DNA from: Rhodoligotrophos appendicifer
GTDB lineage: Bacteria > Pseudomonadota > Alphaproteobacteria > Rhizobiales > Im1
Length of the DNA stretch: 64,000 bases
Assembly: GCF_007474605.1 (NCBI RefSeq)
Contig: NZ_VHKL01000001.1
Location: 1-64,000 of the forward strand
Reading direction: 5' to 3'
Below, piece by piece: positions 24,850 to 40,140 of this stretch. Made by a program: the position numbers and the translations under genes. Below the pieces are notes generated by a model. It worked only from the letters and a program-made list of their open reading frames with translations. It had not been told where the DNA came from and searched no databases. How positions within the stretch are numbered: the stretch's first letter is position 1; each line of letters starts with the position of its first letter.

Positions 24850-25691
24850 TGGATCTCTTTGCGGCACTTCTGCGCCCCTTCGAGTTCGAGTTCATGCGCA
24901 ATGCGCTGATGATCTCGGTTCTCGTGGCGCTCCCCACCGCCCTCCTCTCGTGCTTCCTCGTCTTGAAGGGCTGGTCCCTGATGGGCGATGCCATTTCCCA
25001 CGCGGTGCTCCCGGGAGTGGTCCTCGCCTACATCCTGGGCATCCCCCTCGCCATCGGCGCCTTTGCCGCCGGCATGACCTGCGCGCTCGCCACTGGCTTC
25101 TTGAAGGAGAACAGCCGCATCAAGCAGGACACCGTGATGGGCGTCGTCTTCTCCGGCATGTTCGGCATCGGCATCGTGCTCTACACCAAGATCGAAACCG
25201 AGGTGCATCTGGATCATATCCTGTTCGGCGATATGCTCGGCGTCGGCTGGCAGGATATTCTGGAGACCGCCGTCATCGCCGCCATAACCGCCGGCATCAT
25301 CCTCTTCAAATGGCGCGACCTCCTGCTTCATGCATTCGATCCGGTCCAGGCGAAGGCGGTGGGGCTGAGGGTCCGGCTCCTGCATTATAGCCTCTTGTGC
25401 CTCCTCTCGCTCACCATCGTCGGCGCCTTGAAGGCCGTCGGCATCATCCTCGTCATCGCCATGCTGATTTCGCCCGGCGCCATCGCCTTCCTGCTGACGC
25501 GCACCTTTGGGGGCATGCTGACGCTGGCGGTCGCCCTGGCCGTGGGATCGTCCTTCCTCGGCGTCTATCTCAGCTTCTTCATCGACAGTGCCCCCGCCCC
25601 CACCATCGTGCTCCTGATGGCCGTCTGCTTCATCGCGGCCTTCCTCTATTCCACCGGCAAGGCCGCCCGGGCGTCAGCCCAGGAGATCTGA
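24846..25691 (+). CDS. sitD: Manganese/iron ABC transporter permease SitD
   Basis: A 281-residue second ABC-3 permease, paralogous to SitC: LRPFEFEFMRNALMISVLVA, KGWSLMGDAISHAVLPGVVL, HAFDPVQAKAVGLRVRLLHY and MLISPGAIAFLLTRTFGGML. Presence of two different permeases (C and D) is typical of Sit rather than Znu systems, which supports a manganese/iron assignment. It ends 16 bases from the stop codon of the convergent EamA gene, with no obvious terminator. Confidence 0.92.
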   Translation: MMDLFAALLRPFEFEFMRNALMISVLVALPTALLSCFLVLKGWSLMGDAISHAVLPGVVLAYILGIPLAIGAFAAGMTCALATGFLKENSRIKQDTVMGVVFSGMFGIGIVLYTKIETEVHLDHILFGDMLGVGWQDILETAVIAAITAGIILFKWRDLLLHAFDPVQAKAVGLRVRLLHYSLLCLLSLTIVGALKAVGIILVIAMLISPGAIAFLLTRTFGGMLTLAVALAVGSSFLGVYLSFFIDSAPAPTIVLLMAVCFIAAFLYSTGKAARASAQEI

Positions 25692-25707: not shown

Positions 25708-26598
25708 TCACCGCTTTAGCAGAAAGGCCATCGCCCCGCTGGCGATGATCAGCCCCGAGCCGACCACGGTCCACAGATCGGGAACCGAACTGAAGAAGAC
25801 ATATCCGAGGATCCCGTTGCTCACGATCTGCAAATAGAAGAACGGCGCCAGCAGCGAGGCATCCGCCAGCCGTGCCGCCTGGATCACCAGATAATGCCCG
25901 ATGGTGCTGGAGAGCCCCACCCCGAACCCGAGCAGCGCCTGGTCCCACGACAGCGGCACCCACAGAAACGGCAGGGGCGCGGACAGGATGACCAGTCCCA
26001 CCAGCGCCGTGCACAGCAGGGTGATCACCGGGCCATCCTGCTTGGCGATGCTCCAGGTGGCGATGGCGCCGAAGGCAAAGCTCAAGGCGGCGGCCAGGGG
26101 GAAGACGATCGCCGGGTCGAACGCCGCCGTTCCCGGCCGGATGACCACCAGCACTCCCGCCAATCCCAGGAGGACCACCCCCCATCGCGGCAGGCTGATC
26201 GTCTCTCTCAGGATCAGCCCGGCCAGCAGGGTGATGAACACCGGTGACACGAAATTCGTCGCCGCCGCTACGGCGATCGGCAGATGCGCGAGACCCGCCG
26301 CATAAAGGAAGGTCGAGGCCGACATCATCACGCCGCGCCCGATCTGCAGCGGCAGCGCCCGCGGCCGCACGACGCTGCCGCGGCGCTGGGCGAGGGCCAG
26401 GACGATCAGCAATGCGGAGAAACTGGCATAGCGGAGCCAGGCGACCTCCAGCACCGGAAGGCTGCCGGTAAGCTGCTTGGTCAGGATATCCGAACCGGTG
26501 AACGTCACGGCGGCGACGCAGACGAGGGCAATCGCCGCGCCGGATGATCCGAGCAGGCGCGACAGGGCCCCTTCGCCCGGAACCTTGCCGCTTGTCAC
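25708..26598 (-). CDS. EamA/DMT family transporter
   Basis: A 296-residue drug/metabolite transporter with ten hydrophobic segments in two EamA repeats: AAIALVCVAAVTFTGSDILT at the start and, in the second half, VFPLAAALSFAFGAIATWSI. GTG at 26598 is the start, with GGAGG nine bases upstream. It is the last of 13 minus-strand genes that begin at 38198, only 30 bases after the CoA-transferase stop. It may export an intermediate or end product; RhaT/EamA relatives handle amino acids and metabolites. Confidence 0.87.
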   Translation of the reverse strand: MTSGKVPGEGALSRLLGSSGAAIALVCVAAVTFTGSDILTKQLTGSLPVLEVAWLRYASFSALLIVLALAQRRGSVVRPRALPLQIGRGVMMSASTFLYAAGLAHLPIAVAAATNFVSPVFITLLAGLILRETISLPRWGVVLLGLAGVLVVIRPGTAAFDPAIVFPLAAALSFAFGAIATWSIAKQDGPVITLLCTALVGLVILSAPLPFLWVPLSWDQALLGFGVGLSSTIGHYLVIQAARLADASLLAPFFYLQIVSNGILGYVFFSSVPDLWTVVGSGLIIASGAMAFLLKR

Positions 26599-26628
26599 GG
26601 TGGCTATCCTCCAGGGCCGGGCCCGGTG

Positions 26629-27807
26629 TTAGATTACGCCGGCCGCGCGAAAGGAGGCGATCTCGGTTTCCGAATAACCATACTCGGCCAGCACCGAGGG
26701 ACCATCCGCCCCCTTCTCCGGTGCAGGTCGCTCCTCATGCGCCTCAAGCGACGCCATGCGGATGGGCGCCGCCGTGAAGCGGGCGCTGCCCACCTCCACG
26801 AACATCTTGCGCGCCGCCAGCTGCGCATCCTCCGCACTGTCCGCGATGGAGTTCAGCGGTCCCGCCGGGACGTCCGCCTCTTCGAACAGGGCGAGCCACT
26901 CGGCCCGCGGCCGCTTCCCCAGCGCCTCCGCCAGGATCTGCTCCAGCGCCGGATGGTTGGCGGTCCGCGCCGTCCCATCGGCGAAGCGTGGATCCTCCGG
27001 CAGGTCGTGCAGCGCCAGCACTCGGCACAGCGCCCGCCATTGCTGGTCGGTGTCGCAGCAGATCACCAGCGGGGCATCCTCGGCCATGAAGGCTTGGAAC
27101 GGCGTCACCAGCGGGTGCCGTGAGCCGATCCGTTGCGGCACCTGCCCTGTGTTGAGGAAGCGCGAAAAGGCATTCTCCAGGATGGCAACCTGGGCATCGA
27201 GCATGGAAACGTCCACCAATGTGCCGCGTCCCGTCCGGCTGCGCTCCTGCAGGGCCGCGAGGATGCCGACCGCGCCGAACAGGCTCGCGGTGATGTCCCC
27301 GATCGAGGCGCCCACCCGAACGGGCCCGCCTCCTGGCTCCCCGGTGATGCTCATCATGCCGGACATGGCCTGGATCACGGCATCGAAGGCGGGCCGGGTT
27401 CGATACGGACCGGTCTGGCCGAACCCTGAGATCGAGGCGAAGATCAGCCGCTCGTTCAGCGCCCTCAGGTCTTCGAAGCCGAGGCCGAGGCGATCCATGA
27501 CGCCCGGCCTGTTGTTCTCAACCAGGATATCGGCGCTGCTCGCCATGTGCCGGAAGATGTCCTTGCCCTGACCTGTCTTGAGATCGAGGCCAACGCTGCG
27601 CTTGTTGCGGTTGACGCTGCCGAAATAGAGGCTCTGCCCCTCATGGAAGGGAGCGATGCTCCGGGTCATGTCGCCCCGCTGCGGATGCTCGATCTTGATG
27701 ACGTTGGCTCCCAGCGCGCCCAGCAGCCATGTGCAATACGGACCCGACAGCATGTGGGTGACGTCGATCACCGTGAGCCCCGCCAGGGGTCCATTCGCCT
27801 CAGCCAT
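26629..27807 (-). CDS. CaiB/BaiF family CoA-transferase (first copy)
   Basis: A 392-residue class III CoA-transferase. Typical elements are the N-terminal LAGLTVIDVTHMLSGPYCTW, GANVIKIEHPQRGDMTR, NRNKRSVGLDLKTGQGK, ENNRPGVMDRLGLGFEDL, GFGQTGPYRTRPAFDAVIQA, and the catalytic Asp (D171) in ASIGDITASLFGA. These enzymes move CoA from a donor thioester to an acid. ATG 27807 has GGAG eight bases upstream. It is 51 bases downstream of the ornithine-cyclodeaminase-like gene, the second-largest gap in this operon. Confidence 0.9.
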   Translation of the reverse strand: MAEANGPLAGLTVIDVTHMLSGPYCTWLLGALGANVIKIEHPQRGDMTRSIAPFHEGQSLYFGSVNRNKRSVGLDLKTGQGKDIFRHMASSADILVENNRPGVMDRLGLGFEDLRALNERLIFASISGFGQTGPYRTRPAFDAVIQAMSGMMSITGEPGGGPVRVGASIGDITASLFGAVGILAALQERSRTGRGTLVDVSMLDAQVAILENAFSRFLNTGQVPQRIGSRHPLVTPFQAFMAEDAPLVICCDTDQQWRALCRVLALHDLPEDPRFADGTARTANHPALEQILAEALGKRPRAEWLALFEEADVPAGPLNSIADSAEDAQLAARKMFVEVGSARFTAAPIRMASLEAHEERPAPEKGADGPSVLAEYGYSETEIASFRAAGVI

Positions 27808-27858
27808 CAAGCGACTCCGATCGAGAATGTGATGCCACCGTTCACGCGGAATTCTCCT

Positions 27859-28842
27859 CTAGATGGGCAGCTCCAGCCCGACGCCCTTCGCTTTGGCCGC
27901 TCTGTAGACACACAGCGCGGTTGCGGCGTCCTCGAGGGCGATCCCCAGATTGAGTGCTGCGATCCGCTCCTCGCGTCCGCGCCGGCCCGGCTCCGTCCCG
28001 GCCACCACGGCCGCCAACTCGCGCGCCGTCGCGGGGACGCCTGAGAAATAACCAAACTCCCGCGTATGATCGAGCTGGTCGAGATCGTCCGAAAAGACCT
28101 GCGCGAAGGCACCGAATGCCGCGGGCTCCCAATAGCAGTCATAATCGAGCGTCACGACCGTTGCACCGGGATCCACCCACGCGATCTTCGCGCTCCTCGG
28201 GGCATCCGGAACGATCGGCCCGCAGGTGACGATGAGCTGTGCCCCGGCCATCGCCTCCTGAGCACCGCCGCAGCAGATGACGTCGAGCCCCTCATGCCGT
28301 GCCGTCATTTCGCGACGATAGCGCTCCATGGCCGCCGCTTCGATGTCGAAGCATCGAACCGTGCGCAGCGACGGGAAGACCAGCCGAAAAGCCTCGAGAT
28401 TGCTGCGCCCCTGCACGCCGCAGCCCATGATCCCCAGAACTGCAGGCGAGGGATTGGCGAGAGCGCGGGCCGCAACGGCCGTCGCTGCAGCGGTCCGCTG
28501 TCCCGTGGTCCAGGTGGAATCCATGATGGCCATGGGCAGCCCGGTCGCCATGTCGTTGAGAATGAGCTGTCCGGTAATATAGGGCTGCCCGTTCAGGTGA
28601 TTGTCTGGCGAACCGCTCTGCCACTTGCAGACCGTGGTCCCGAGACCCGCCAATTGTCCGCTCATCGCCGAGAAGAACCGCCGCGGCCCCGCGGGAATCC
28701 AGTGCTTGGGCGGAAGCAGTGTCTGACCCTTCGCCTTCTCCAGGAAGGCCTCCGTCACCGCGTCGATGATCTCGGACATGGGCAGGTTGAGCTGCTCCAG
28801 ATCGGCCCGCGAGAGATAGAGCAGATGGTGAGGCCGGCTCAT
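27859..28842 (-). CDS. Ornithine cyclodeaminase / mu-crystallin family protein
   Basis: A 327-residue NAD(P)-binding protein with YLSRADLEQLNLPMSEIIDA at the N-terminus, a substrate-domain Lys in CKWQSGSPDN, and the Rossmann motif LGIMGCGVQGRSNLEAF. It has PKHWIPAGPRRFFSAM where ornithine cyclodeaminases have the P-x-R-x-hydrophobic segment. The family includes ornithine and alanine dehydrogenases and ketimine (delta-1-pyrroline-2-carboxylate) reductases. A reductase acting on a cyclic imine would fit the proline-racemase-like enzyme in this operon, but that is inference. It overlaps the DUF35 gene by four bases. Confidence 0.85.
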   Translation of the reverse strand: MSRPHHLLYLSRADLEQLNLPMSEIIDAVTEAFLEKAKGQTLLPPKHWIPAGPRRFFSAMSGQLAGLGTTVCKWQSGSPDNHLNGQPYITGQLILNDMATGLPMAIMDSTWTTGQRTAAATAVAARALANPSPAVLGIMGCGVQGRSNLEAFRLVFPSLRTVRCFDIEAAAMERYRREMTARHEGLDVICCGGAQEAMAGAQLIVTCGPIVPDAPRSAKIAWVDPGATVVTLDYDCYWEPAAFGAFAQVFSDDLDQLDHTREFGYFSGVPATARELAAVVAGTEPGRRGREERIAALNLGIALEDAATALCVYRAAKAKGVGLELPI

Positions 28843-29267
28843 GCTGTGCTCTTTTCCGCGAGAACGAAGACTGGGAGCGGATAGCGCCGGGCAATCTCTG
28901 CGCTCGGCACCTCCACCGCGTCGCCGGAGGCAACCTGGTCGCGATTGTCGCCGACGATCCGAGCCAGCAGCGTAGCGCCCTCCACGAGCGCGATTTCTGC
29001 AAGCACGATCGGCGTCTCGTCGTTGAAGGCGGGATCGTTCGGCCGCGCGATCGAACTATATGACACGACGTGCCCGCGGCCCTCGGCGACCACCTCTTCC
29101 AGCTCGGTGGACCATGTCTCCGGATCCATCGGCCGCGGATAGAAGAACGGCTTTCCGCCCCGCGCCTTCTGCAGCAGGATTTTGCCGTCCTCCCGCCAAC
29201 GCCGCAGGAAGGCGGCATTGTCCTGGTCTTCCCGCGGCTGCGGATAAGGTGCTTTTTCCGAACTCAT
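28839..29267 (-). CDS. DUF35 OB-fold protein without a zinc ribbon
   Basis: A 142-residue OB-fold acyl-CoA-associated (DUF35) protein. The N-terminal helix FLRRWREDGKILLQKARGGK should lead into a rubredoxin-like ribbon with four Cys, but the protein has no cysteine at all (the expected CxxC is KARGG); the following FFYPRPMDPETWS and OB-fold EGRGHVVSYSSIARPNDPAF are intact. DUF35 proteins act as partners of thiolase-fold enzymes, and this gene overlaps one by four bases. The Cys-free ribbon is either a lost metal site or a naturally metal-free subgroup. Confidence 0.82.
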   Translation of the reverse strand: MSSEKAPYPQPREDQDNAAFLRRWREDGKILLQKARGGKPFFYPRPMDPETWSTELEEVVAEGRGHVVSYSSIARPNDPAFNDETPIVLAEIALVEGATLLARIVGDNRDQVASGDAVEVPSAEIARRYPLPVFVLAEKSTA

Positions 29268-30430
29268 TCTGCGGTCTCCAGCACGACGGCGGATGTGGAA
29301 AGGCCATGGCCGTAGCCGACCATTCCATAGCCGGACACCACGCCCCGGCACGCGCCCGGGGTCTGGAACGCCCCGGCTTCTCCGCGCAATTGGCGCACCG
29401 CCTCCACCAGTCCGATCATCCCGCCGGCAGCGCCGGCCTGTCCGCAGGACAGCTGGCCGCCATTGGTATTCACCGGGAACGACCCGTCGAACTGCATGGT
29501 CCGTTCCGCCAGGAAGCGGCTGACCTCGCCCTTGGCGCAGAAGCCCAGGTCTTCGAGCTGGATGGCCACCATGATCGGGTAGTCGTCATAGGCCTGCACG
29601 AACTGCATGTCTGCCGGCCCAAACCCGGCATCACCCCACAGCCGGTCCCGGAACAGCTCCCATCCTCCGCGCAGCGGAGCGATCTCCCCCGCCGGATGAT
29701 TGTGCCGCTCATAGCCCGACAACACCTTCACCGCCTTGCCCCGGGGCGCCCGGTCCAGGGCGCCGACCACGACCGCTTCCGCACCCGGGCACGGCAGAAC
29801 GCAGTCGTAAAGCCGGATCGGATCGGCGATGATCCGCGCATTCATGTAGTCTTCGATGCTCAGCGGCCCGCGCAGCAGCGCGTTCTCGTTCAGCCGGGCG
29901 CTCGCCCGCTGCCCCACGGCGATGCGCCCGAGATCCTCCCGCCGCGTCCCATAGGTCTCCATGTGCTTGCGCTGGATGATGCCGAACAGGCCGTTCGCGC
30001 CGCCGAAGCCGTTCGGGGTGCCGTAATTGATCAGCGCCTTGTTGAAATAGTCCATCAGCTTGAAATGGCCGCCGACGTCGTAATTGTCCGCCGCCAGGCA
30101 CAGGACGGTCTTCGCGTCGCCCGCTTCCACCGCCCGGATCGCATTGATCACCGAGGCCACGGGTCCCGCCCCGCCGGCGGTCCCGAGATAGGCCCAGGAC
30201 ACGCTGATCCCGAATTGCTCGGCGAGTGTCACGGCATTGTCCGGCGGCAGCTCGAACGAGCACACGGCGATCCCGTCGATGTCGTTCTTCGTAAGGCCCG
30301 CCGAGGCCAATGCCCGCCGCGCCGCATCCGCCAGCAGCGCGATCAGGGTGCTGTCGCTCTTCTTCTTGTACACGGTCTCGCCGTAACCCAGGATCCCGAT
30401 CGACTGCGCGGCGATTGAGGAGACGGCCAT
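29264..30430 (-). CDS. Thiolase-fold protein lacking the thiolase catalytic residues
   Basis: A 388-residue SCPx/lipid-transfer-type thiolase. The nucleophilic Cys of thiolases is absent: the loop at about residues 82-90 reads LGTAGGAGP instead of a C-A-S-G pattern. The GHP motif is replaced by NTNGGQLSCGQAGAAGG (320-336), and the C-terminal CxG loop reads VVSGYGMVGYGHG (364-376). A conserved YDDYPIMVAIQLEDLGFC segment (281-298) is present. Thiolase-like proteins of this kind paired with DUF35 partners include the steroid side-chain retro-aldolase Ltp2, so carbon-carbon lyase activity is more likely than thiolysis. Confidence 0.82.
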   Translation of the reverse strand: MAVSSIAAQSIGILGYGETVYKKKSDSTLIALLADAARRALASAGLTKNDIDGIAVCSFELPPDNAVTLAEQFGISVSWAYLGTAGGAGPVASVINAIRAVEAGDAKTVLCLAADNYDVGGHFKLMDYFNKALINYGTPNGFGGANGLFGIIQRKHMETYGTRREDLGRIAVGQRASARLNENALLRGPLSIEDYMNARIIADPIRLYDCVLPCPGAEAVVVGALDRAPRGKAVKVLSGYERHNHPAGEIAPLRGGWELFRDRLWGDAGFGPADMQFVQAYDDYPIMVAIQLEDLGFCAKGEVSRFLAERTMQFDGSFPVNTNGGQLSCGQAGAAGGMIGLVEAVRQLRGEAGAFQTPGACRGVVSGYGMVGYGHGLSTSAVVLETAE

Positions 30431-31659
30431 CAGATGATCCCCGCTTTGACCAGCGACTGGCGCTCGGCCGCGTTGAGCCCGAGCATTTCGCCGAACACCT
30501 CGTCATTGTGGAAGCCGGAATCTCGGCCGGTCCATCGGATCTGTCCCGGCGTGTCGCTGAGCCGTGGAACGGGTGCGGGCATCCGCATCGCCCCCAGCGT
30601 CTCGTCGAACAGCGTCGCGACCGCTTCCCGCGCCACCACATGGGGATGCGTCAGCACCTGTGAAATGTCGTGGATGACGCCGGCCACCACCTGATGCGAC
30701 TCGAGAATGTCGACCGCGACATCCGTCGGCTGGAGGCGCATCCAATCCGCGACGATCCCGTCGATCGCATCCCGGTGCACCACCCGCTGCGCCATGGAGG
30801 TGAATCGCGCATCCGTCTTCAGCTCCGGTCGCCCCATCGCATCCGCCAGATTGTCGAAGATCCGCTGCGACCCGCAGCTGATCGCGATATGCCCGCCATC
30901 CGCCGTTGCATAGATATTGCGCGGCACGTCCTCTTCCATCTGGTTGCCGATGCGCGGCTTTCCGGCCCCGGTCTGGTCGTATCGGACCACCACCGACTCG
31001 ATGATCCGCAACAGCGGCTCATAGAGGCTCACATCCACCACCTGCCCCAGGCCCGTGTGGCTTCGGTTGTGCAGCGCCACCATGGCTCCATAGGCTCCGA
31101 ACAGCCCCGCCAGGTAATCTCCGAGCGGGAACGCTGAAACCATCGGCCCGCGGTCCGGAAAGCCAGTGAAGGATGCCAGGCCGCTGAAGCCTTCCGCCAC
31201 CGTGGCGTAGCCGCCGCGCTCGCGATAGGGTCCGCTTTGGCCGAAGCCCGAGACCCGGACCCAAACCGTGCGGGGCATGCTCTCCCGCAGCACGGCAGGA
31301 TCGAAGCCCCAGCGCTCCAGCGTGCCCGGCTTGAAGTTTTCAATGACGATGTCGCTGCGGGCGATCAGCTGCATTGCCACCTCGCGACCCTCGGGCTTCG
31401 AGATGTCCAATGTCACGAGCCTTTTGCCGCGGGATGTCGTCTTCCACCATAGCGGCTGGCCGTCCTTGTGGGGTGGCCACTCCCGCAAGGCATCCGGCTT
31501 CCCCGGCTTTTCGACCTTGATCACGTCGGCCCCGAAATCGGCCAGCATGCTGCCGACGAAGGGCCCGGCCAGCATGGAACCCAGTTCCAGGACCTTGATA
31601 TCCGCCAGGGCTCCTGGCACCGGGGCCTTCGGTCTGACGTCTTCCGCAGCGTCGGTCAT
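30430..31659 (-). CDS. CaiB/BaiF family CoA-transferase (second copy)
   Basis: A 409-residue class III CoA-transferase, only distantly similar to the first copy. Motifs: LADIKVLELGSMLAGPFVGS, GADVIKVEKPGKPDALREW, TTSRGKRLVTLDISKPEGRE, IENFKPGTLERWGFDP, VSGFGQSGPYRERGGYATVA and the catalytic Asp (D181) in PLGDYLAGLFGAYG. The start at 31659 sits six bases after a GAGG and just past the upstream stop codon. It overlaps the thiolase-fold gene by one base (TGATG). Having two different CoA-transferases in one operon suggests two acid intermediates or a donor/acceptor pair. Confidence 0.9.
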   Translation of the reverse strand: MTDAAEDVRPKAPVPGALADIKVLELGSMLAGPFVGSMLADFGADVIKVEKPGKPDALREWPPHKDGQPLWWKTTSRGKRLVTLDISKPEGREVAMQLIARSDIVIENFKPGTLERWGFDPAVLRESMPRTVWVRVSGFGQSGPYRERGGYATVAEGFSGLASFTGFPDRGPMVSAFPLGDYLAGLFGAYGAMVALHNRSHTGLGQVVDVSLYEPLLRIIESVVVRYDQTGAGKPRIGNQMEEDVPRNIYATADGGHIAISCGSQRIFDNLADAMGRPELKTDARFTSMAQRVVHRDAIDGIVADWMRLQPTDVAVDILESHQVVAGVIHDISQVLTHPHVVAREAVATLFDETLGAMRMPAPVPRLSDTPGQIRWTGRDSGFHNDEVFGEMLGLNAAERQSLVKAGII

Positions 31660-31667
31660 CGCTGGCC

Positions 31668-32675
31668 TCAACCGATCCGGAAGCCGCTTCCCAGCGGATC
31701 TTCGGGGTCGATGATGAACTGGTGCAGGCCCGTCATCCAGGCTGAACCGCTGATTTCCGGCACCCAGGCGTCATACTCGCCGACCTTCGTCTTCGACAGC
31801 ATGCGGCCTCCGAACAATGAGCCGGTAATGCCCTCCGACACGATCGCCTCATCCTCTTTCATGAGGCCGTGGCTGATCATGATCGTCATCATGTGCGAAG
31901 TTCCGGTACCGCCCGGCGAACGGTCGAACGAGCCGTCCGAGAACACGTGGATGTTCTTGTAGAGCGCACCCGGTGCCCGCCCCGGTCCCCAGATGGTCAC
32001 CAGGTCGACGGATTTGATATGGTCGAGCGTCGGGTGCTGCACTTTCATTTGCGCATTCACCGCGTGTCGGATGGCGAGCCCCGCCTTCACCAGCTTCTCG
32101 GTGTTCTCCGGCCCCACCTCGATCCCCAGGTTTTTGCCCTGGACGCCGGCGAAGAAGCTGCCGCCGAAGGCGATGTCGACCGGGACCGTGCCATAGCCCG
32201 GAACGTCGATCTGATTGTCGCGGCTATGCAGGAAGGCCGGAACATTGACCATGGCGGTCCTGACCGCGCGGCCGTTCTCGATGGTCACATGGGCTTCCAC
32301 CAGGCCCGCCGGCATGTCGATTTTGATCTTCGTCACCGGCTCCGTCACCGGCACGAGGCCCGCTTCCACGCAGACGATGCCGATGCCGATCGTCCCATGG
32401 CCGCACATGTTGAGATAGCTGCCGTCGTGATCCACCCAGATGATGCCGAAATCGACTTCGGGCCGCGTCGCAGGCGCCATGACGGCCCCGAACATGCCCC
32501 GATGGCCGCGCGGCTCGCACATCAACGCGGAGCGCAGATGATCGAGATTGTTGCGCATGTAGTCGCGCTGCTCCAGCAGCGTCCGGCCCTTCAGCGGAAT
32601 GCCGCTGACGATCAGCCGCGTAGGCTCGCCGCCCGTATGGGAATCGATGGTGGAAATGACGTGCTTGCTTCTCAT
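31668..32675 (-). CDS. Proline racemase family enzyme with one catalytic Cys missing
   Basis: A 335-residue protein with the PrpF/proline-racemase fold and the family starts HVISTIDSHTGGEPTRLIVS and EPRGHRGMFGAV. The first catalytic Cys is present (C91 in NMCGHGTIG). The second site, DRSPCGTGT in racemases and epimerases, reads DRSPGGTGTS, so residue 256 is Gly. Racemisation needs both cysteines; trans-3-hydroxyproline dehydratases carry Thr at the second site. A dehydratase or isomerase activity is therefore more likely. ATG at 32675 is nine bases after GAGG. It lies 14 bases downstream of the permease gene. Confidence 0.88.
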   Translation of the reverse strand: MRSKHVISTIDSHTGGEPTRLIVSGIPLKGRTLLEQRDYMRNNLDHLRSALMCEPRGHRGMFGAVMAPATRPEVDFGIIWVDHDGSYLNMCGHGTIGIGIVCVEAGLVPVTEPVTKIKIDMPAGLVEAHVTIENGRAVRTAMVNVPAFLHSRDNQIDVPGYGTVPVDIAFGGSFFAGVQGKNLGIEVGPENTEKLVKAGLAIRHAVNAQMKVQHPTLDHIKSVDLVTIWGPGRAPGALYKNIHVFSDGSFDRSPGGTGTSHMMTIMISHGLMKEDEAIVSEGITGSLFGGRMLSKTKVGEYDAWVPEISGSAWMTGLHQFIIDPEDPLGSGFRIG

Positions 32676-32689
32676 GGGGTCAATCCTCG

Positions 32690-33493
32690 CTAGTTGGTTG
32701 CGGCCCGATCGATGCCGATGACGCGGTCGAGCGCGACGACGACGATGATGGCGACATAGATGGTAGTGGCGGATACGGCGGCGATCATTGGATCGACGTT
32801 GTATTGGATGTAGTTGAACAGCTTCACCGGGATGGGCATGAGGCTGGCGGTCGTGTTGAACATGCTGAGCTCGACATTGATCCAGGAGATGATGATCGCG
32901 AACAGCGAGCCCGCGATGATCCCCGGCTTGATCAGCGGCAGGGTGATCAGGAAGAAGGTGCTCACCGCCGACGCACCCAGGTCCTGCGCCGCTTCTTCGA
33001 GCGAATTGTTGAAGCCGGCGAGCGACGCCAGCGTCGTCCTCACGATATACGGGATGACCAGCACCACATGGCCCACATAGAGGACCCAGAAGGTGCGGGC
33101 GATCCCCGTCGACGTTCCGAACTGCAGCAGGGCCGCCCCGATCACGATCGGCGGCAGGATCAGAGGCGAGAGGAACAGGGCGGCAAGCGCTCTCGATCCC
33201 TTGAACTGTGCCCGGGTGAGCACCAGCGCCACTGGGACCCCCAGCACCACGGCCGTAGCCGTCGCCGAGACGGCGAGCCACCCGCTCAGCGCGAGCGAGT
33301 CGAGATAGGACCGATCCCCCAGGAACTGCGCATACCACTTGAGTGAGAAGCCCGCCGGCGGAAACTGCAGGAAGGCGCTGGCGGTGAATGATGTGCTGAC
33401 GATGATCACCAGCGGCAGCGCCAGGAACAGGATGGTGATCCAGGCTGAAGCCGACAGGAGCATTTGGCCGAGGCTGGGCGCTCTCCGTTCCAT
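32690..33493 (-). CDS. ABC transporter permease, PotC-like
   Basis: A 267-residue inner-membrane permease of the spermidine/putrescine-type (MOI) family with six hydrophobic segments starting SAWITILFLALPLVIIVSTSF, a periplasmic SAFLQFPPAGFSLKWY typical of PotC/PotI, and the EAA loop LEEAAQDLGASAVSTFFLIT. The family imports polyamines, but related systems carry amino acids, opines or thiamine, so the ligand is open. GAGAGG precedes the ATG. It starts three bases after the PotB-like gene. Confidence 0.9.
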   Translation of the reverse strand: MERRAPSLGQMLLSASAWITILFLALPLVIIVSTSFTASAFLQFPPAGFSLKWYAQFLGDRSYLDSLALSGWLAVSATATAVVLGVPVALVLTRAQFKGSRALAALFLSPLILPPIVIGAALLQFGTSTGIARTFWVLYVGHVVLVIPYIVRTTLASLAGFNNSLEEAAQDLGASAVSTFFLITLPLIKPGIIAGSLFAIIISWINVELSMFNTTASLMPIPVKLFNYIQYNVDPMIAAVSATTIYVAIIVVVALDRVIGIDRAATN

Positions 33494-33496
33494 GGT

Positions 33497-34348
33497 CTAA
33501 CCTCTCGCCGCGCTGGGCTTTGAGCCCCGGTCGAGCACCAGCATGTAGAACACGACCAGGATGAGCGTGGTGACGAGCAGCACCACCGAGAGCGCGGCCC
33601 CGAGTTCGAAATTGAGGATCGCTCCATATTGCTGGAAGATCAGCATCGACATGACCAGCTCACGCCCGCCGCTCAGGATGCTCGGCGTCACATAGGCGCT
33701 CACCGTGAGGGTGAAGATGATCAGCGATCCAGCCACGACACCCGGCAGGCTCAGGGGAAAAGTCACCTTGAGAAAGGCGGTCCAGGCGTTGCAGCCCAGG
33801 TCGCGCGCGGCGTCTTCGAGGCTCTTGTCGATGTTCTGCAGCACGCTGGCGATGGTCAGCACCATGAACGGCAGCATGATGTAGACGAGGCCGAGGATGA
33901 TGCTGAACTGTCCATAGAGCAGCGCGATGGGCCGGTCGATGATCCCCGCGCCCACCAGCGTGTCGTTGATCAGCCCTTTCCGTCCGAGGAGCACGATCCA
34001 TCCGAACGCGCGCACGATGTTGCTGGTGAACAGCGGCGTGATGATCACGATATACATCAGCCGCCTGACCCAGCGGCTCTCGATCCGCCGCACGATGTAA
34101 TAGGCCAGGGGATAGCCGATGATGAAGCAGCACACCGTCACCCAGAGGGACAGCCGAAAGGTGTCGAACAACGTCGCCCAGTAATAGCCCTCGCCGAAGA
34201 TCTTGGCGTAATTGTCGGCCGCCCAGGCGCCGTCCTGTGTCTGGAAGCTCTGGATGACGATGAGGATGAACGGCACGATGAAGAAGGCGAGCAGAAAGGT
34301 CACCGGCGCGCAAAGCAGTGCAAGGACCCATTTGCGCGACAGCTGCAT
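33497..34348 (-). CDS. ABC transporter permease, PotB-like
   Basis: A 283-residue permease with six hydrophobic segments (WVLALLCAPVTFLLAFFIVP first), the periplasmic segment TQDGAWAADNYAKIFGEGYY, and the EAA loop LEDAARDLGCNAWTAFLKVT that contacts the ATPase. It shares one base with the DUF4387 stop codon (TAATG), so it is translated from the same mRNA as the AtuA/DUF4387 pair, which is unusual placement for a permease. Confidence 0.9.
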   Translation of the reverse strand: MQLSRKWVLALLCAPVTFLLAFFIVPFILIVIQSFQTQDGAWAADNYAKIFGEGYYWATLFDTFRLSLWVTVCCFIIGYPLAYYIVRRIESRWVRRLMYIVIITPLFTSNIVRAFGWIVLLGRKGLINDTLVGAGIIDRPIALLYGQFSIILGLVYIMLPFMVLTIASVLQNIDKSLEDAARDLGCNAWTAFLKVTFPLSLPGVVAGSLIIFTLTVSAYVTPSILSGGRELVMSMLIFQQYGAILNFELGAALSVVLLVTTLILVVFYMLVLDRGSKPSAARG

Positions 34349-34680
34349 TATTTGTCCTCGAGCGTGATGGCCAGCCCCATCAGCGGCACATGCTGCTGGC
34401 AGCCATACATGTCGCTTTCACCGAAGGCCCCTTGCGCCTTTCGCTTGAGCGTCACTTTGATGGCATTCGCCATGTCGACGGCGAACAGCGAGGAGATCCT
34501 CTCCTCCGGTATGCCATAGGCCCCGGCGACCGAGGCCTCGGTCACCGACTTGCTGTCCCGAACGCGGCGATAGGTCTCCGCGTCGTCGAACAGGATGTCG
34601 AGAGTGATCCTGTACGGGCCGGCATTCTTGCTGCGGATAATGGCCGCGAGATCCTGAAGGGGAACGGTACGGGTCGGCAT
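34348..34680 (-). CDS. DUF4387 domain-containing protein
   Basis: A 110-residue protein opening MPTRTVPLQDLAAIIRSKNA and containing GPYRITLDILFDDAETYRRV and the family-typical KSVTEASVAGAYGIPEERIS. DUF4387 proteins are almost always encoded next to DUF1446/AtuA proteins and are thought to be their small subunit; biochemical function is unknown. Its start codon overlaps the AtuA stop codon by one base, and its stop codon overlaps the permease start by one base. Confidence 0.88.
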   Translation of the reverse strand: MPTRTVPLQDLAAIIRSKNAGPYRITLDILFDDAETYRRVRDSKSVTEASVAGAYGIPEERISSLFAVDMANAIKVTLKRKAQGAFGESDMYGCQQHVPLMGLAITLEDK

Positions 34681-36029
34681 CAGAGGTCCTCGATCTCGAC
34701 GGGGAACAGCTCCATGGGCGAAGCTGTCTTCATCAGATGATAGGCGGAGAACTCGTAGACGGCGCCGCCGTCGAGCTCCGATGGCGAATACGGAAACGCG
34801 AGATTGCCCGAGGTGTTGAACTGCCCGGGATGGTGCCGGTGCAGCAGCTTGCCGCTGAGATGGTGGCAGGCGCCATGGGCGGTGGCCTGGTCTGCTGCGA
34901 GCACGTCCATGACCAGGCCGATCTCCGTCGACTGCATGTTCCGCTTTGGCTCCAGCTCCTGCATGACGCCGTCCCGGCCATAGACATGGAAGGTGATCTT
35001 CAGGTCCGGCCGGCCGAAATAATCCAGCGTCTCCTGCCGTGATCCCGTCAGCAGATGGTCCAGATGCGCGATCGTGGTCGGACACCGGATGCCGGCCACC
35101 GAGATGCTGCGGAACCCGAGGCGACGTGCCCCTTCGAGCTTCACCCAATACTCGGGTGTCATCGTCGCCCGGGCGCCCGAGACCTTTACGCGGCGATCGC
35201 CGTCGGCGACGAATTTGCAGGCGGAAAGATCGAGTTCATGGCCGGGGCCGCCTTGCTGGAACGGGTTCTCGCGCTCATAGAGCGAATGCGCCGCGACCGA
35301 CTTCACCGACGCCCGACGCTCCAGGGAGCCGGGCTCCAGGACGAAGTGGTCGTCATGCACCTCGCCCATCATCACGTCCATGGCGAACGGCTCGGCGGAA
35401 AAGGCGCCGCATTCCAGGATTTTTCCCATATGGATGGAAAGCGCCAGGTCGGCCCCGCGCCACACGGGGAAAGCGGCGATCGTCGAGTCGTCGCAGGCCC
35501 GTCCCGCGATGATGACGTCCGCGCCCTCGTCGAGCGCCTTGCAGATCGGCTCGTGACCCATCTGCGCCACGAGCGCGTTCGTGTCCTGGAGGTCGGCCTC
35601 CGTCAGCGGCGTCTCCGCTTCGAAGTCTTGGACTTCGCCGTTCCGGACGGCCCGTTTCGCCCGCTCGATGGGAATGTCCGAATAGATGGCGCCAAGCCGG
35701 AATTTCAGCCCTGTCTCCCGGGCGATCTCCCTGACGATGTCCAGCGTCCAGTCCACATGGGCGCCGGTCCCGGCACCGCCCGCGCTCCCGACGATCAGCG
35801 GAATCTTTGCCCGCCGGCTCGCCTCGATCAGATCCGTCAATTCCCGCTTCATGGCGAAACGGGACACCAGCGGCTCGCCGGCTCCCAGATAATGCGGGCC
35901 GGGATCGGTCGAGCCCGCATCCACCGCGATGACGTGAGGGGACAGCGACATGCCTCGCTTCAAGGCTTCGGCGCCAAAGCCATAGCCGAGAGTGCCGGTG
36001 GGCGTGAGGACGGTGATGGGTGCGGTCAT
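34680..36029 (-). CDS. AtuA family (DUF1446) protein
   Basis: A 449-residue DUF1446 protein, the family of AtuA from the acyclic terpene utilisation operon of Pseudomonas. Visible elements: TPTGTLGYGFGAEALKRGMS, VIAVDAGSTDPGPHYLGAGE, IVGSAGGAGTGAHVDWTLDI, DVIIAGRACDDSTIAAFPVW and CHHLSGKLLHRHHPGQF. Glycine-rich loops suggest a nucleotide or CoA-binding fold, but no reaction has been assigned to the family to my knowledge. It lies between the ABC ATPase and permease genes, with DUF4387 as its partner, so its substrate is probably what the transporter imports or an immediate derivative. Confidence 0.88.
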   Translation of the reverse strand: MTAPITVLTPTGTLGYGFGAEALKRGMSLSPHVIAVDAGSTDPGPHYLGAGEPLVSRFAMKRELTDLIEASRRAKIPLIVGSAGGAGTGAHVDWTLDIVREIARETGLKFRLGAIYSDIPIERAKRAVRNGEVQDFEAETPLTEADLQDTNALVAQMGHEPICKALDEGADVIIAGRACDDSTIAAFPVWRGADLALSIHMGKILECGAFSAEPFAMDVMMGEVHDDHFVLEPGSLERRASVKSVAAHSLYERENPFQQGGPGHELDLSACKFVADGDRRVKVSGARATMTPEYWVKLEGARRLGFRSISVAGIRCPTTIAHLDHLLTGSRQETLDYFGRPDLKITFHVYGRDGVMQELEPKRNMQSTEIGLVMDVLAADQATAHGACHHLSGKLLHRHHPGQFNTSGNLAFPYSPSELDGGAVYEFSAYHLMKTASPMELFPVEIEDL

Positions 36030-36056
36030 AGGGGTGTCCGTTGCTTCAGTCTCAAA

Positions 36057-37121
36057 TTAGGCATCGAGGACTCGGCCGCGATCGCGCTGCCAATGGATGG
36101 TCAGCCGATGGCCGGGCTCCAGGGACGCTCGCTCTTCGAACTTTGAAGGCTGGAAGACCAGCGGCTGGTCACCCCCGAAATCCGCATGGATCCGAGTTGC
36201 TCCGCCGAGAAACACCCGCTCGAGGACCGTGACGTCCAGTCCGACATGGTTCTCGTCTGGTGCGGGCCCCACCTCGATATCCTCGGGCCGGATCATCACG
36301 ACCTTCTTCGCACTTCCGTTCGCCGTGTAGGGCAGCACGTCTGTTGTACCGTCGAGCCGCAATCCGTCTGTCGCGTTTGTGGCGTTGAGCAGGTTGGCCT
36401 CCCCGATGAAGGACGCGACGAAACGGCTGTTCGGAGCGCGATAGATGTCTTCTCCCGAGCCGGTCTGGATGATCAGCCCTTCATTCATGACCGCGATCCG
36501 GTTGGCCATGACCAGCGCTTCCTCTTGGTCATGCGTGACGAAGATGAACGTGATGCCCAGTCGTGCCTGTAAATGCTTCAACTCGAGCTGCATTCGCTTC
36601 CGCAGCTGCAGGTCGAGGGCCCCGAAGGGCTCGTCCAGCAACAGCACCCGCGGCTTGTTGATCACCGCCCTGGCGAGGGCGACCCGCTGCTGCTGGCCGC
36701 CGGAAAGTTCGTTGGGGAAGCGCTCCTCGAACCCGCTCAGTCCCACGAGTTCGAGCGTTGCTTTGACCTCCCGCTCGATCTCGGCCGCGTCCTGGCCGCG
36801 ACGCTTCGGCCCGAAAGCCACGTTCCGCCCCACATTCAGATGCGGGAACAGCGCGTAGTTCTGGAAGACCGTGTTCACCGGCCGCTTGTTCGGCGGCAAG
36901 CCCATCATCGGCGTGCCGTCGATGGTGATGCTTCCCTCGCTGGGGTCGATGAAACCCGCGATGAGCCGAAGCAGCGTTGTCTTTCCGCAGCCGCTGGGAC
37001 CGAGCAAGGCGACGAACTCGCCTTGCCCGATTTCCATGGAGATGCCCTTGAGCGCGGCAAAGGTTCCGTAGCGCTTGACCACGTTGTCCACGCGGATCAA
37101 GCAGTCGGAGGAGGCGGACAC
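36057..37121 (-). CDS. ABC transporter ATP-binding protein, PotA-like
   Basis: A 354-residue ATPase with Walker A GPSGCGKTT, Q-loop VNTVFQNYALFPHLNVGRNV, signature NELSGGQQQRVALARAV, Walker B VLLLDEPFGALDLQLRK, switch His in FVTHDQEEALVMAN and a C-terminal TOBE domain (VVMIRPEDIEVG onward). The start is GTG at 37121, with GGAG about nine bases upstream. It is 24 bases downstream of the binding-protein gene and 27 bases upstream of AtuA. Confidence 0.92.
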   Translation of the reverse strand: MSASSDCLIRVDNVVKRYGTFAALKGISMEIGQGEFVALLGPSGCGKTTLLRLIAGFIDPSEGSITIDGTPMMGLPPNKRPVNTVFQNYALFPHLNVGRNVAFGPKRRGQDAAEIEREVKATLELVGLSGFEERFPNELSGGQQQRVALARAVINKPRVLLLDEPFGALDLQLRKRMQLELKHLQARLGITFIFVTHDQEEALVMANRIAVMNEGLIIQTGSGEDIYRAPNSRFVASFIGEANLLNATNATDGLRLDGTTDVLPYTANGSAKKVVMIRPEDIEVGPAPDENHVGLDVTVLERVFLGGATRIHADFGGDQPLVFQPSKFEERASLEPGHRLTIHWQRDRGRVLDA

Positions 37122-37145
37122 GATGGGGCGCTCCTTAATCCGCGA

Positions 37146-38198
37146 TCACTTGCGCGCGATTTCCTTGTTCCAGATATCGGTAATCGCCTGGCGCTTGGCG
37201 TTGATGGCTGGCCAGTCGATCCGGGCAAGATCGGCAATGGTCCCATCGCCCCAGGGCATCCGGGACTTCGCCTTTTCCGAAAGCTCGACTCCCTTGGTGG
37301 CCGGGCCGACATAGAGCTTTTCCGACAGGCATTTGGCCTGCTCTTTGCCGATGGCGAAATCGACCAGCTTCTCTGCAGCCTCTGTCTTCTTCGTCCCCTC
37401 GACGATGTGCACGCGGATATCGCCGCTGGGCGCACCCTCCTTGGGCGGAGAATAGGAGATCGGCAGTCCCTTGTCGGCCAGCGACCAGGCGGCACTGGCA
37501 TAATGCCCGCCGACGATCACTTCGCCGCTCTGAAAGCTGTTCGTCGCAGCACCCGAGCTATCGAAATAGGAGGAAACCTTCCACTCTTTGTACTTGTCGA
37601 TGGCCGGTTTGAAATTGTCGAGGTCGCCCCCCGCCAGCTTGTTGATATGCACGAAGAGCGGCACGCCCATGGCGTTGGCCGGGCTCGGCACCGTGGAAGC
37701 GCCGTCGAATTCGGGCTTCGAGAGATCCCACCAGGAGGTCGGTGCCGGCTTGACGTCTTCGGTGTTGTAGACCAGGCCGAGCGAATAGAAGCCGGTCGAC
37801 AGACCGTAGACCTTGCCGTCCTTGGACTTGTAGACGCCTTCCGTCTCCATGTTTGCCATGTTGGGGATCTTCGCAGGATCCAAGGTCGCGACGACCCCTT
37901 CCTCTCCGGCGAGCTCTGAGACACCGCCGTCGATCCATGCGACGTCGATCGCTGGATTACCCTTTTGTTGGCGCAGCTTGGCGAGCGTCACCGTGGATGT
38001 CCCTGGGTCCGGCGTCACGGTGATCCCGGTGGCCGCCGTGAAGGGCTGCAGGATGCACTGGGTAATGCCTTCGCCCCATTCGCCGCCATAGACGGCAACG
38101 GTCAGTGCTTCTTGAGCGGTACTCGGCTGTAGGAAAGTAACGGCGCTGGCGAGCAGCGTAGCAGCAAACACAGTTCTTTTTTGTAGGACTCTCATCAT
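37146..38198 (-). CDS. ABC transporter substrate-binding protein, PotD-like
   Basis: A 350-residue periplasmic binding protein. The signal peptide MMRVLQKRTVFAATLLASAV ends near PSTAQE. Mature features of the PotD/PotF-type family: ALTVAVYGGEWGEGITQCIL, TVTLAKLRQQKGNPAIDVAW, YGLSTGFYSLGLVYNTEDVK and WWDLSKPEFDG. GGGAG is five bases upstream of the ATG at 38198. It heads a run of 13 same-strand genes and faces the LysR gene across 130 bases. The ligand is probably small and charged, but polyamine binding should not be assumed. Confidence 0.9.
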   Translation of the reverse strand: MMRVLQKRTVFAATLLASAVTFLQPSTAQEALTVAVYGGEWGEGITQCILQPFTAATGITVTPDPGTSTVTLAKLRQQKGNPAIDVAWIDGGVSELAGEEGVVATLDPAKIPNMANMETEGVYKSKDGKVYGLSTGFYSLGLVYNTEDVKPAPTSWWDLSKPEFDGASTVPSPANAMGVPLFVHINKLAGGDLDNFKPAIDKYKEWKVSSYFDSSGAATNSFQSGEVIVGGHYASAAWSLADKGLPISYSPPKEGAPSGDIRVHIVEGTKKTEAAEKLVDFAIGKEQAKCLSEKLYVGPATKGVELSEKAKSRMPWGDGTIADLARIDWPAINAKRQAITDIWNKEIARK

Positions 38199-38265: not shown

Positions 38266-38277
38266 TGTCAAATGACA
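38266..38277. promoter_or_regulatory. Palindrome in the LysR/binding-protein intergenic region, candidate LysR site
   Basis: TGTCAAATGACA consists of perfect five-base arms around AA, lying 68 bases upstream of the binding-protein start and 52 bases before the LysR start. LysR proteins bind such dyads between divergent genes. It is short, so chance occurrence is possible. Confidence 0.35.
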
Positions 38278-38328
38278 AGTTTTCGGTTTACTATTCCCTG
38301 GGGTTATTCCGCTTGGGGAGGCGGCATC

Positions 38329-39240
38329 GTGAATATGCGCCAGTTGGAGGCCTTCAGAGCGGTGATGGAGACGGGTTCGGTGACCCGTGCCGCGACGACC
38401 CTGCACGTCTCTCAGCCTGCGGTGAGCAAGCTGCTTGCAGCTCTGGCGCGGGAATGTGGCTTCGATCTGTTTCGTCGCCGGAGTAACCGCCTCTTTCCGA
38501 CGTCGGAGGCGATGGCCCTGTTTGGTGAGGTCGAACGTGTCTTCGTCGGGGTGGAAAAGGTCTCCCGCTTCGCCGGGGATATCCGCGACATGCGGTTTGG
38601 TCAATTGTCCATTGCGTCCTTCCCGGCCATCACCACCCGTTTTCTGCCCAAGATCATTGTCCGCTTTCGCGAGACCTATCCTGGCACGGCTGTCTCGCTG
38701 GTCAGTCGCAGTTCCCGGGCACTCGTTGACTGGATCGCAGCCCAGCGTGCCGATATCGGCATCGGTCTGATGACCGTTGAAGTGGCCGACATTGAGTTCC
38801 AGCCACTGGGATCCTTTGACGGTGTCTGCGTGCTTCCTCCCGGCCATCCCCTGACCGCGAAGGATGTCGTACATGTTCACGACCTGGACGGTGTCCCCTT
38901 CATCGAAATCGGCGCTGATGATCGCTCACGCGCCCGCGTCGATCGCGCCTTCGAAGGCGTGCGAATCCACCGCAACAACATCATAGAGGCCCAACAATCG
39001 GAAGCCGCCTGCGCTTTCGTCGCTGCGGGAGCGGGGGTCTCGGTGGTAGAGCCCTTCAGTGCCTCGGGATTCAGGGATGATGAAATCGTCGTGCGCCCCT
39101 TCCGCCCCCGCGTCACCTTCGATCTGTGGCTGATGCTGCCGACACTCCGCCCCCGCGCTCAGATGACGGATGTGTTTGTGAGCACGCTGCGCGAGAGTTT
39201 GGCGAGCTTCTCGGCCAGTTTCCCTCCGGGGAGAGGCTAG
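38329..39240 (+). CDS. LysR family transcriptional regulator
   Basis: A 303-residue LysR regulator: helix-turn-helix MRQLEAFRAVMETGSVTRAA with TLHVSQPAVSKLLAALAREC, then the co-inducer domain (LSIASFPAITTRFLPKIIVR ... AQRADIGIGLMTVE). NocR/OccR-like LysR proteins of opine and amino-acid catabolism share this layout. I choose GTG at 38329 because GGAGG is seven bases upstream; ATG 38335 is nearly equivalent. Divergent from the 13-gene unit and likely its activator. Its stop codon overlaps that of the following convergent hydrolase by four bases. Confidence 0.9.
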   Translation: MNMRQLEAFRAVMETGSVTRAATTLHVSQPAVSKLLAALARECGFDLFRRRSNRLFPTSEAMALFGEVERVFVGVEKVSRFAGDIRDMRFGQLSIASFPAITTRFLPKIIVRFRETYPGTAVSLVSRSSRALVDWIAAQRADIGIGLMTVEVADIEFQPLGSFDGVCVLPPGHPLTAKDVVHVHDLDGVPFIEIGADDRSRARVDRAFEGVRIHRNNIIEAQQSEAACAFVAAGAGVSVVEPFSASGFRDDEIVVRPFRPRVTFDLWLMLPTLRPRAQMTDVFVSTLRESLASFSASFPPGRG

Positions 39241-40082: not shown

Positions 40083-40100
40083 TGTTCAAGACTGAGGTCG

Positions 40101-40140
40101 CCAAGGTGTCGCCTTGGAGGGGTCTTTGCAAGCCCCTCCA
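40101..40140 (-). promoter_or_regulatory. Two mutually exclusive hairpins in the leader of the Asp-nucleophile hydrolase gene
   Basis: Read on the minus strand, TGGAGGGG (40140-40133) pairs with CCCCTCCA (40122-40115) around a ten-base loop, and CCAAGG (40117-40112) pairs with CCTTGG (40106-40101). The two stems share 40115-40117, so they cannot form together. The second ends 18 bases before the ATG at 40082. This resembles a switching leader, but a repeat or an intergenic terminator for the upstream hydrolase gene could look the same. Confidence 0.35.

What the first reader, a model, noticed from the sequence alone, without database searches (positions are those of the whole stretch)
25708..38198. 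Thirteen-gene unit that looks like an uncharacterised catabolic pathway
Seen: 13 minus-strand genes from the PotD-like gene to the EamA gene with one-base or four-base overlaps or gaps under about 52 bases, and a divergent LysR gene. Known: each family works on acids, CoA thioesters or cyclic amino acids. Inference: a polyamine-type ABC importer brings in a small substrate, the racemase-like and ornithine-cyclodeaminase-like enzymes process a hydroxylated or cyclic amino acid, two CoA-transferases make thioesters, and the thiolase-fold/DUF35 pair cleaves a C-C bond. I know of no described pathway with this gene set.
Basis: partly seen in the sequence, partly recalled or inferred. Interest (0 to 1): 0.75.

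Follow-up and report, generated by a model that had tools for sequence, protein, structure and literature searches.

The report
Operon splitting branched hydroxy acids
This is a conserved but undescribed bacterial gene unit that probably imports a branched hydroxy acid and cuts it apart with two different kinds of C-C lyase, one related to a recently solved citramalate lyase and one related to steroid side-chain aldolases.

Summary
In detail: 13 same-strand genes (25708-38198, minus) with overlaps of 1-4 bases or gaps of 3-48, and a divergent LysR gene. Co-occurrence is not chance. A nine-gene core (AtuA, DUF4387, four Pot-type ABC genes, one family-III CoA-transferase, thiolase-fold protein, DUF35) recurs: of 27 loci with this AtuA type found in a scan of 84,980 genomes, 15 carry CoA-transferase, thiolase-fold and DUF35 genes (14 also the transporter); of 20 control loci with other AtuA, none. 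Racemase-like, OCD, second CoA-transferase and EamA genes vary.
AtuA/DUF4387 is homologous to the solved two-subunit citramalate lyase (PDB 9erq/9evf) but in a separate clade. The 'thiolase' lacks the nucleophilic Cys and has YDDY where the retro-aldolases Ltp2 and Sal have YDHF and YDCY: probably a CoA-dependent aldolase. The racemase-like protein has Cys/Gly instead of Cys/Cys or Cys/Thr. One relative keeps both lyases but has a CoA ligase, TRAP transporter and MmgE/PrpD protein instead of CoA-transferase and ABC importer.
Best reading: catabolism of a citramalate-like branched hydroxy acid by two retro-aldol cleavages; substrate unknown.

The parts
37146..38198 (-). potD: periplasmic binding protein (SBP_bac_8) of a Pot-type ABC importer
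   Evidence: Pfam; homologues 47-65% identical in operon loci
36057..37121 (-). potA: ABC ATPase with TOBE_2
   Evidence: Pfam; best NCBIfam matches PhnT2/PotA-like, below cut-off
34680..36029 (-). atuA: homologue of citramalate lyase subunit A (short AtuA, PF07287)
34348..34680 (-). duf4387: homologue of citramalate lyase subunit B
   Evidence: Pfam; PDB 9erq_B E 1.6e-22
33497..34348 (-). potB: ABC permease
   Evidence: Pfam
32690..33493 (-). potC: ABC permease
   Evidence: Pfam
31668..32675 (-). prac: proline-racemase-fold enzyme with Cys/Gly active-site pair (MCGHG / DRSPGGTGT); accessory
   Evidence: Pfam; Gly in 5 of 5 copies beside this operon (window included), 0 of 49 others
30430..31671 (-). 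coaT1: family-III CoA-transferase of the core
   Evidence: Pfam; present in 15 of 27 loci; PxGD motif in 15 of 16 copies
29264..30430 (-). thl: thiolase-fold, probable retro-aldolase (YDDY, no nucleophilic Cys)
   Evidence: Sal/Ltp2 residues from PMC12329534
28839..29267 (-). duf35: OB-fold partner of thl; zinc ribbon not recognised in the window
   Evidence: PF01796 only; relatives L082 and L093 also match zf-ChsH2
27859..28842 (-). ocd: ornithine cyclodeaminase/mu-crystallin family dehydrogenase; accessory
   Evidence: Pfam; best PDB hits are alanine dehydrogenase entries
26629..27810 (-). coaT2: second family-III CoA-transferase; accessory
   Evidence: Pfam; 31% identical to coaT1
25708..26598 (-). 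eamA: EamA-family transporter; accessory (7 of 27 relatives have an MFS transporter near instead)
   Evidence: Pfam
38272..39240 (+). lysR: divergent LysR-type regulator
   Evidence: Pfam; a LysR gene is seen in 20 of 27 related loci

Best explanation
The unit encodes uptake and breakdown of a C-branched (tertiary) beta-hydroxy acid of the citramalate kind. SHOWN by homology: an importer; a CmlAB-like lyase (AtuA/DUF4387); a family-III CoA-transferase; a thiolase-fold/DUF35 pair lacking the thiolase nucleophile; and the fact that these are inherited together. INFERRED: PotABCD imports the acid. AtuA/DUF4387 cleaves a free 2-hydroxy-2-substituted succinate-like acid into a 2-oxo acid plus acetate (or a substituted acetate) without CoA; the ADP in the PDB title of 9evf suggests that ATP/ADP takes part. 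CoaT1 loads CoA onto a second hydroxy acid (another stereoisomer, homologue or later intermediate), and Thl/DUF35 cuts that beta-hydroxyacyl-CoA by retro-aldol reaction, with Tyr281 as base and Asp283 where Sal has Cys and Ltp2 has His, into acyl-CoA plus a carbonyl compound. Prac, OCD, CoaT2 and EamA are add-ons that bring in stereoisomers or amino derivatives or move side products. Which step comes first is not settled.
Against: No activity or substrate has been measured. The window AtuA lies outside the CmlA clade, and the stretch PFAMDVM of its clade reads PGSGSDC in CmlA and its nearest rows, so citramalate itself may not be the substrate. No hydratase is among the 13 genes, unlike the methylaspartate units. 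Twelve of 27 loci with this AtuA lack CoaT1/Thl, three of them also the second cassette, so the two lyases need not act in one route. Some AtuA/DUF4387 neighbourhoods do not point to branched di- or tricarboxylates: flavin-dependent oxidoreductase and alcohol dehydrogenase genes, aldehyde dehydrogenases, luciferase-like and short-chain dehydrogenase genes (L104). I found no precedent for Asp in place of the Sal Cys or Ltp2 His, and other thiolase-fold activities, such as decarboxylation, are open.
Confidence: 0.55

Rival explanations
1. Hydroxyproline/cyclic amino-acid pathway: Prac dehydrates trans-3-hydroxy-L-proline, OCD reduces the resulting pyrroline-2-carboxylate, and the other genes handle carbon fragments.
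For: A proline-racemase-fold gene and an OCD gene lie in one operon; that pair is known for trans-3-hydroxyproline (PMC4113996, Results section read; its Tables 1, 2 and 4-7 were not shown). Prac is 49% identical to an Acetoanaerobium copy that has the Cys/Cys pair.
Against: Prac is at that place in 2 of 27 related loci, and its second residue is Gly, not Cys or Thr. The OCD is not conserved as an orthologue (26-30% in three compared). The core has no role in such a route.
Confidence: 0.1
2. The unit is a true thiolase pathway: CoaT1 activates a beta-keto acid released by AtuA/DUF4387 (from a 3-hydroxy-3-substituted glutarate) and Thl/DUF35 thiolyses it, as BbsAB does.
For: A benzoylsuccinyl-CoA thiolase subunit is among the PDB matches (7pxp_C, E 1.2e-26), and NCBIfam lists acetyl-CoA acetyltransferase-like models, all below cut-off.
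Against: No Cys in the nucleophile stretch and the GHP His is Gln; PMC12329534 states that Sal, with Gly there, cannot do thiolysis.
Confidence: 0.15
3. AtuA/DUF4387 belongs functionally with the second conserved cassette (amino-acid-type ABC importer, FMN-dependent and D-2-hydroxyacid dehydrogenases, RraA aldolase), and CoaT1/Thl/DUF35 is a separate pathway parked beside it.
For: The cassette adjoins this AtuA in 12 of 27 loci, in 9 of them without CoaT1/Thl. The window genome carries it, without the FMN enzyme, on another contig (L148).
Against: AtuA/DUF4387 lies inside the Pot/CoaT1/Thl transcription unit in the window with 1-base overlaps, and L172 keeps Thl/DUF35 with an AtuA of another type (40% identity).
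Confidence: 0.2

Closest known systems
Citramalate lyase CmlAB (PDB 9erq, 9evf; AtuA family + DUF4387)
   Same: Two-gene pair, 40-41% identity and the same fold for subunit A, homologous subunit B.
   Different: Separate clade; no methylaspartate-pathway genes; sits inside an importer/CoA-transferase/aldolase operon.
Steroid side-chain aldolases Sal-Shy(DUF35) and Ltp2-ChsH2(DUF35)
   Same: Thiolase fold with DUF35 partner, conserved catalytic Tyr, no nucleophilic Cys, Gln in the stretch where Sal has Gln352.
   Different: YDDY instead of YDCY/YDHF; non-steroid context; zinc ribbon of DUF35 not recognised in the window.
Itaconate/citramalate operon Ict-Ich-Ccl (PMC9875883, passages)
   Same: CoA-transferase followed by cleavage of a branched beta-hydroxyacyl-CoA to acetyl-CoA plus a 2-oxo acid; an MmgE/PrpD gene recurs in relative L172.
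   Different: No itaconyl-CoA hydratase among the 13 genes; a thiolase-fold candidate in place of citramalyl-CoA lyase.
Acyclic terpene utilisation AtuA (long form)
   Same: Homologous over 301 columns, hhalign probability 99.5%; described as an acetate-releasing lyase.
   Different: Long forms are one chain (frames of 598-643 residues); the window has 449 residues plus a separate DUF4387.
Proline racemase superfamily (ProR, 4HypE, T3LHypD)
   Same: Family match and first Cys motif.
   Different: Second catalytic residue is Gly; PMC4364671 lists Cys-Cys, Cys-Thr and Ser-Cys/Ser-Thr types (passages).

Membership tests
CmlAB citramalate lyase | Homology of both subunits to the solved enzyme, genes adjacent | tested here: met
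CmlAB citramalate lyase | Same fold over the whole chain (subunit A) | tested here: met
CmlAB citramalate lyase | Falls in the clade of the solved enzyme | tested here: not met
   Window in a clade of 28 rows (SH-aLRT 100, quick tree) apart from the 9erq row
CmlAB citramalate lyase | Methylaspartate mutase / ammonia-lyase / mesaconase neighbours | tested here: not met
   None among the window genes scanned by Pfam
CmlAB citramalate lyase | Cleaves citramalate to acetate and pyruvate | not testable with these tools
   Needs an assay
Ltp2/Sal acyl-CoA retro-aldolase | Catalytic Tyr of the YDxx motif | tested here: met
   YDDY in the window and in all 15 unsplit copies looked at; Tyr role from PMC12329534
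Ltp2/Sal acyl-CoA retro-aldolase | Thiolase nucleophilic Cys absent | tested here: met
   GTAG[GS]AGPVA in the window and in the 13 copies where the pattern was found; L101 and L102 not matched by the pattern and not judged, L093 split
Ltp2/Sal acyl-CoA retro-aldolase | Second catalytic residue Cys (Sal) or the second Tyr (Ltp2) | tested here: not met
   Asp283 in place of the Sal Cys; the Ltp2 Tyr344 position aligns with Gly in the pairwise alignment
Ltp2/Sal acyl-CoA retro-aldolase | DUF35 partner | tested here: met
   PF01796
Thiolase (BbsAB/SCP2 type) | Nucleophilic Cys and GHP His | tested here: not met
Proline racemase / 4HypE | Cys/Cys (or Ser/Cys) acid-base pair | tested here: not met
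   Cys/Gly in the window and the four copies beside related operons
trans-3-hydroxy-L-proline dehydratase | Cys/Thr or Ser/Thr pair | tested here: not met
trans-3-hydroxy-L-proline dehydratase | OCD-family pyrroline-2-carboxylate reductase partner | tested here: inconclusive
   An OCD gene is present but scores below all 13 NCBIfam cut-offs listed
Atu terpene pathway | Long single-chain AtuA | tested here: not met
   449 residues plus separate DUF4387
Itaconate operon Ict-Ich-Ccl | Itaconyl-CoA hydratase and citramalyl-CoA lyase genes | tested here: not met
   No hydratase or CitE-type lyase family found by Pfam among the 13 genes; a MaoC-like gene lies outside, at 46579-47247
Family-III CoA-transferase | Homology and the conserved Asp (role recalled) | tested here: met
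   Pfam 379.5 and 418.8 bits; GD motif in both

The most novel reading that the evidence does not exclude
A previously undescribed, horizontally moving pathway for a C-branched hydroxy acid that uses two unrelated retro-aldol chemistries in one operon: a CoA-free, possibly ATP/ADP-activated AtuA/DUF4387 lyase with a non-citramalate substrate, and a new YDDY subgroup of thiolase-fold acyl-CoA aldolases. In some lineages it is extended by a one-base (Cys/Gly) member of the proline-racemase fold with a new activity.
Probability: 0.35. Interest if true: 0.75.

Novelty: new variant of a known kind. Interest (0 to 1): 0.5.

Why it matters
AtuA-family and DUF4387 proteins are annotated as 'terpene utilisation' or unknown. 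This operon ties one clade of them to a solved citramalate lyase and to a thiolase-fold aldolase, and gives a compact set of genes with testable chemistry. It would place three poorly understood groups in one pathway: short AtuA/DUF4387 outside the CmlA clade, YDDY thiolase-fold proteins with DUF35, and Cys/Gly proline-racemase homologues. It would also correct names copied into other genomes.

Tried and rejected

Caveats on counts. The 27 loci come from two short peptide patterns of one AtuA clade, so other clades are undersampled. The control was not exhaustive: L172, found by Thl and not part of the 20, is an AtuA locus of another type (40%) that does carry Thl and DUF35. In the neighbourhood script only the best-scoring query is kept at each place; two control loci (L024, L077) carry a generic CoA-transferase III labelled coaT2 at 33-36%. 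In the wide genome searches only the first 4 or 5 candidates per genome were scored, so those tallies are lower bounds. Ten of the 27 loci have less than 6.1 kb on one side of AtuA, among them four without CoaT1/Thl (L089, L096, L104, L107), so absences there are lower bounds. Rows dropped: L099 is not in the tree (the script leaves out identical rows); L133-L135 gave no racemase match over 800 bases and were left out. L100 OCD, L093 thl and L069 atuA appear in two pieces and were left so.
Full report
WHAT IS THERE. Thirteen minus-strand genes run from potD (start 38198) to eamA (end 25708), with junctions of -4 to +48 bases, and a LysR gene diverges from potD. Pfam assigns every gene. Among the NCBIfam matches listed for the 13 genes (best 25 per protein) none reaches its cut-off; PotA comes closest (TIGR01187, 354 of 355.6 bits), and AtuA, DUF4387 and DUF35 have no match. 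So that library names no exact function.

IT IS A CONSERVED UNIT. A plasmid of Ochrobactrum sp. MT180101, typed as conjugative, carries AtuA (67%), DUF4387, PotABC, CoaT1 (65%), Thl (71%), DUF35 and an OCD gene in one run, with PotD and LysR beside it and without prac or coaT2. A scan of 84,980 bacterial and archaeal genomes with an AtuA alignment of the two gave 27 loci at 63-71% identity, by record title 25 from Alphaproteobacteria and one MAG each of Beta- and Gammaproteobacteria. Of these, 15 of 27 carry CoaT1, Thl and DUF35 near AtuA/DUF4387, and 14 of 27 also the Pot permeases. As a control, none of 20 loci of 11-25 kb around other AtuA genes (18 short forms at 32-49%, two long forms) holds CoaT1, Thl or DUF35 homologues at E <= 1e-20 (two have a generic CoA-transferase III). 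In the AtuA tree the window type is one clade of 28 rows (SH-aLRT 100, quick tree without bootstrap). Operon-bearing loci fill or share two of the three branches at its base, and the operon label needs 6 changes on the tree, so gains and losses have been frequent. The unit is patchy: a Thl search at E <= 1e-120 hit 2 of 397 genomes of the window's order, its own and G889.

AN INDEPENDENT SEED AGREES. G889 was found by Thl alone. Its locus L172 has AtuA (40%), DUF4387, DctP, DctQ, DctM, MmgE/PrpD, Thl (65%), DUF35 and an AMP-forming CoA ligase in one same-strand run. The AtuA type, the importer and the CoA-activating enzyme have all changed, but CoA activation, Thl/DUF35 and AtuA/DUF4387 remain. 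I take this as the best evidence that the two C-C lyases belong to one pathway; it is one locus.

Thl IS PROBABLY NOT A THIOLASE. Its nearest PDB sequences are 9myr, 4u4e and 6ok1. PMC12329534 (passages; it names 9MYR) shows Tyr302 and Cys304 of YDCY as catalytic in Sal, Tyr294 of YDHF and Tyr344 in Ltp2, and Gly in place of the thiolase nucleophile. The window and the 15 unsplit operon copies looked at have YDDY, and the GHP His is Gln. YDDY also occurs in four more distant copies (L073, L079-L081), three of them beside Rieske dioxygenase and CoA ligase genes on Paracoccus, Roseibium and Sulfitobacter plasmids; in L079 the DUF35 part is fused to a short-chain dehydrogenase. So Tyr281 is the likely base and Asp283 holds the place of Cys or His. 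DUF35 keeps a recognisable zinc ribbon in L082 and L093 but not in the window.

THE ACCESSORY GENES. Prac homologues at 73-75% sit at the same place only in L082 and L084; 43% copies lie beside the operon in L101 and L102. All five, the window's included, have Cys/Gly and form one clade (SH-aLRT 98), while 0 of 49 other copies in that tree have Gly (those 49 come from three searches, not a full sample of the family). PMC4364671 lists Cys-Cys, Cys-Thr and Ser-Cys/Ser-Thr types (passages); PMC4113996 says some clusters lack one or both Cys, so Cys/Gly may have been seen before without an assigned activity. The OCD family is present near AtuA in 8 of 27 loci (6 of the 15 operon loci plus L085 and L096) but is only 26-30% identical to the window's in the three compared, one of them over 84 residues only. 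Seven of 27 relatives have an MFS transporter near the end of the unit where the window has EamA. CoaT2 has no counterpart at this place.

A SECOND CASSETTE. In 12 of 27 loci this AtuA adjoins another conserved set: SBP_bac_3 importer (binding protein, two permeases, ATPase), D-2-hydroxyacid dehydrogenase, RraA-like aldolase, LysR and, in 9, an FMN-dependent dehydrogenase; some of the 12 are cut by the locus end. Three loci (L091, L094, L108) have both sets, three (L096, L103, L104) neither. The window genome has the cassette, without the FMN enzyme, on contig C4 (RraA 71% to L105). This points again to hydroxy and oxo acids.

INTERPRETATION. The simplest model is a citramalate-like pathway with two cleavages, one CoA-free (AtuA/DUF4387) and one CoA-dependent (CoaT1, Thl/DUF35), comparable in logic to the itaconate/citramalate operon of Pseudomonas (PMC9875883, passages), where an MmgE/PrpD protein is inferred to interconvert stereoisomers. 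Whether the two act in sequence on one molecule or in parallel on stereoisomers or homologues cannot be told from sequence. Not shown: substrate, direction, order of steps, and the role of ADP.

LIMITS. The organism's name was not given; kinship codes only. Counts depend on one AtuA clade and on flanks of 10 kb or less (12 kb for L062). The structure model had a shallow alignment (15 rows, 62-71% identical to the window).

Noticed in passing
window 39237-47977 (minus): Beyond LysR lies another minus-strand block: two alpha/beta hydrolases, an AMP-forming acyl-CoA ligase, acyl-CoA dehydrogenase, TRAP transporter parts (DctM, DctP), MaoC-like gene and IclR regulator. Ligase, dehydrogenase and hydratase could make beta-hydroxyacyl-CoA, the kind of substrate expected for Thl. 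The hydrolase 39237-40082 has relatives beside prac in L101 and L102.
   Followed up: partly
window 23090-25691 (plus): A manganese/iron-type ABC importer (ATPase and two ABC-3 permeases) converges on the operon end; the ATPase passes the NCBIfam cut-off of PRK15056 (438 bits, cut-off 393). Not part of the conserved unit.
   Followed up: no
L148 (own genome, contig C4), 6008-11861: Cassette of LysR, SBP_bac_3 importer, D-2-hydroxyacid dehydrogenase (seen as two overlapping matches) and RraA-like aldolase, homologous to the set that adjoins AtuA in 12 of 27 relatives.
   Followed up: partly
L079-L081 (Paracoccus, Roseibium, Sulfitobacter plasmids): A YDDY thiolase-fold gene beside Rieske dioxygenase subunits, AMP ligase and cyclase-family genes; in L079 DUF35 is fused to a short-chain dehydrogenase. 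Possibly a second pathway with the same aldolase type.
   Followed up: partly
own genome: The genome has 15 matches to thiolase-fold proteins of this family (E <= 0.001), the most of the 61 genomes searched (next 12 and 11, same genus).
   Followed up: no
L062, L084, L091, L094, L095, L098, L099, L106, near the lysR start: A TAAC-N5-GTTA palindrome, a possible LysR-type site, in 8 of 10 relatives looked at; not found in the window.
   Followed up: no
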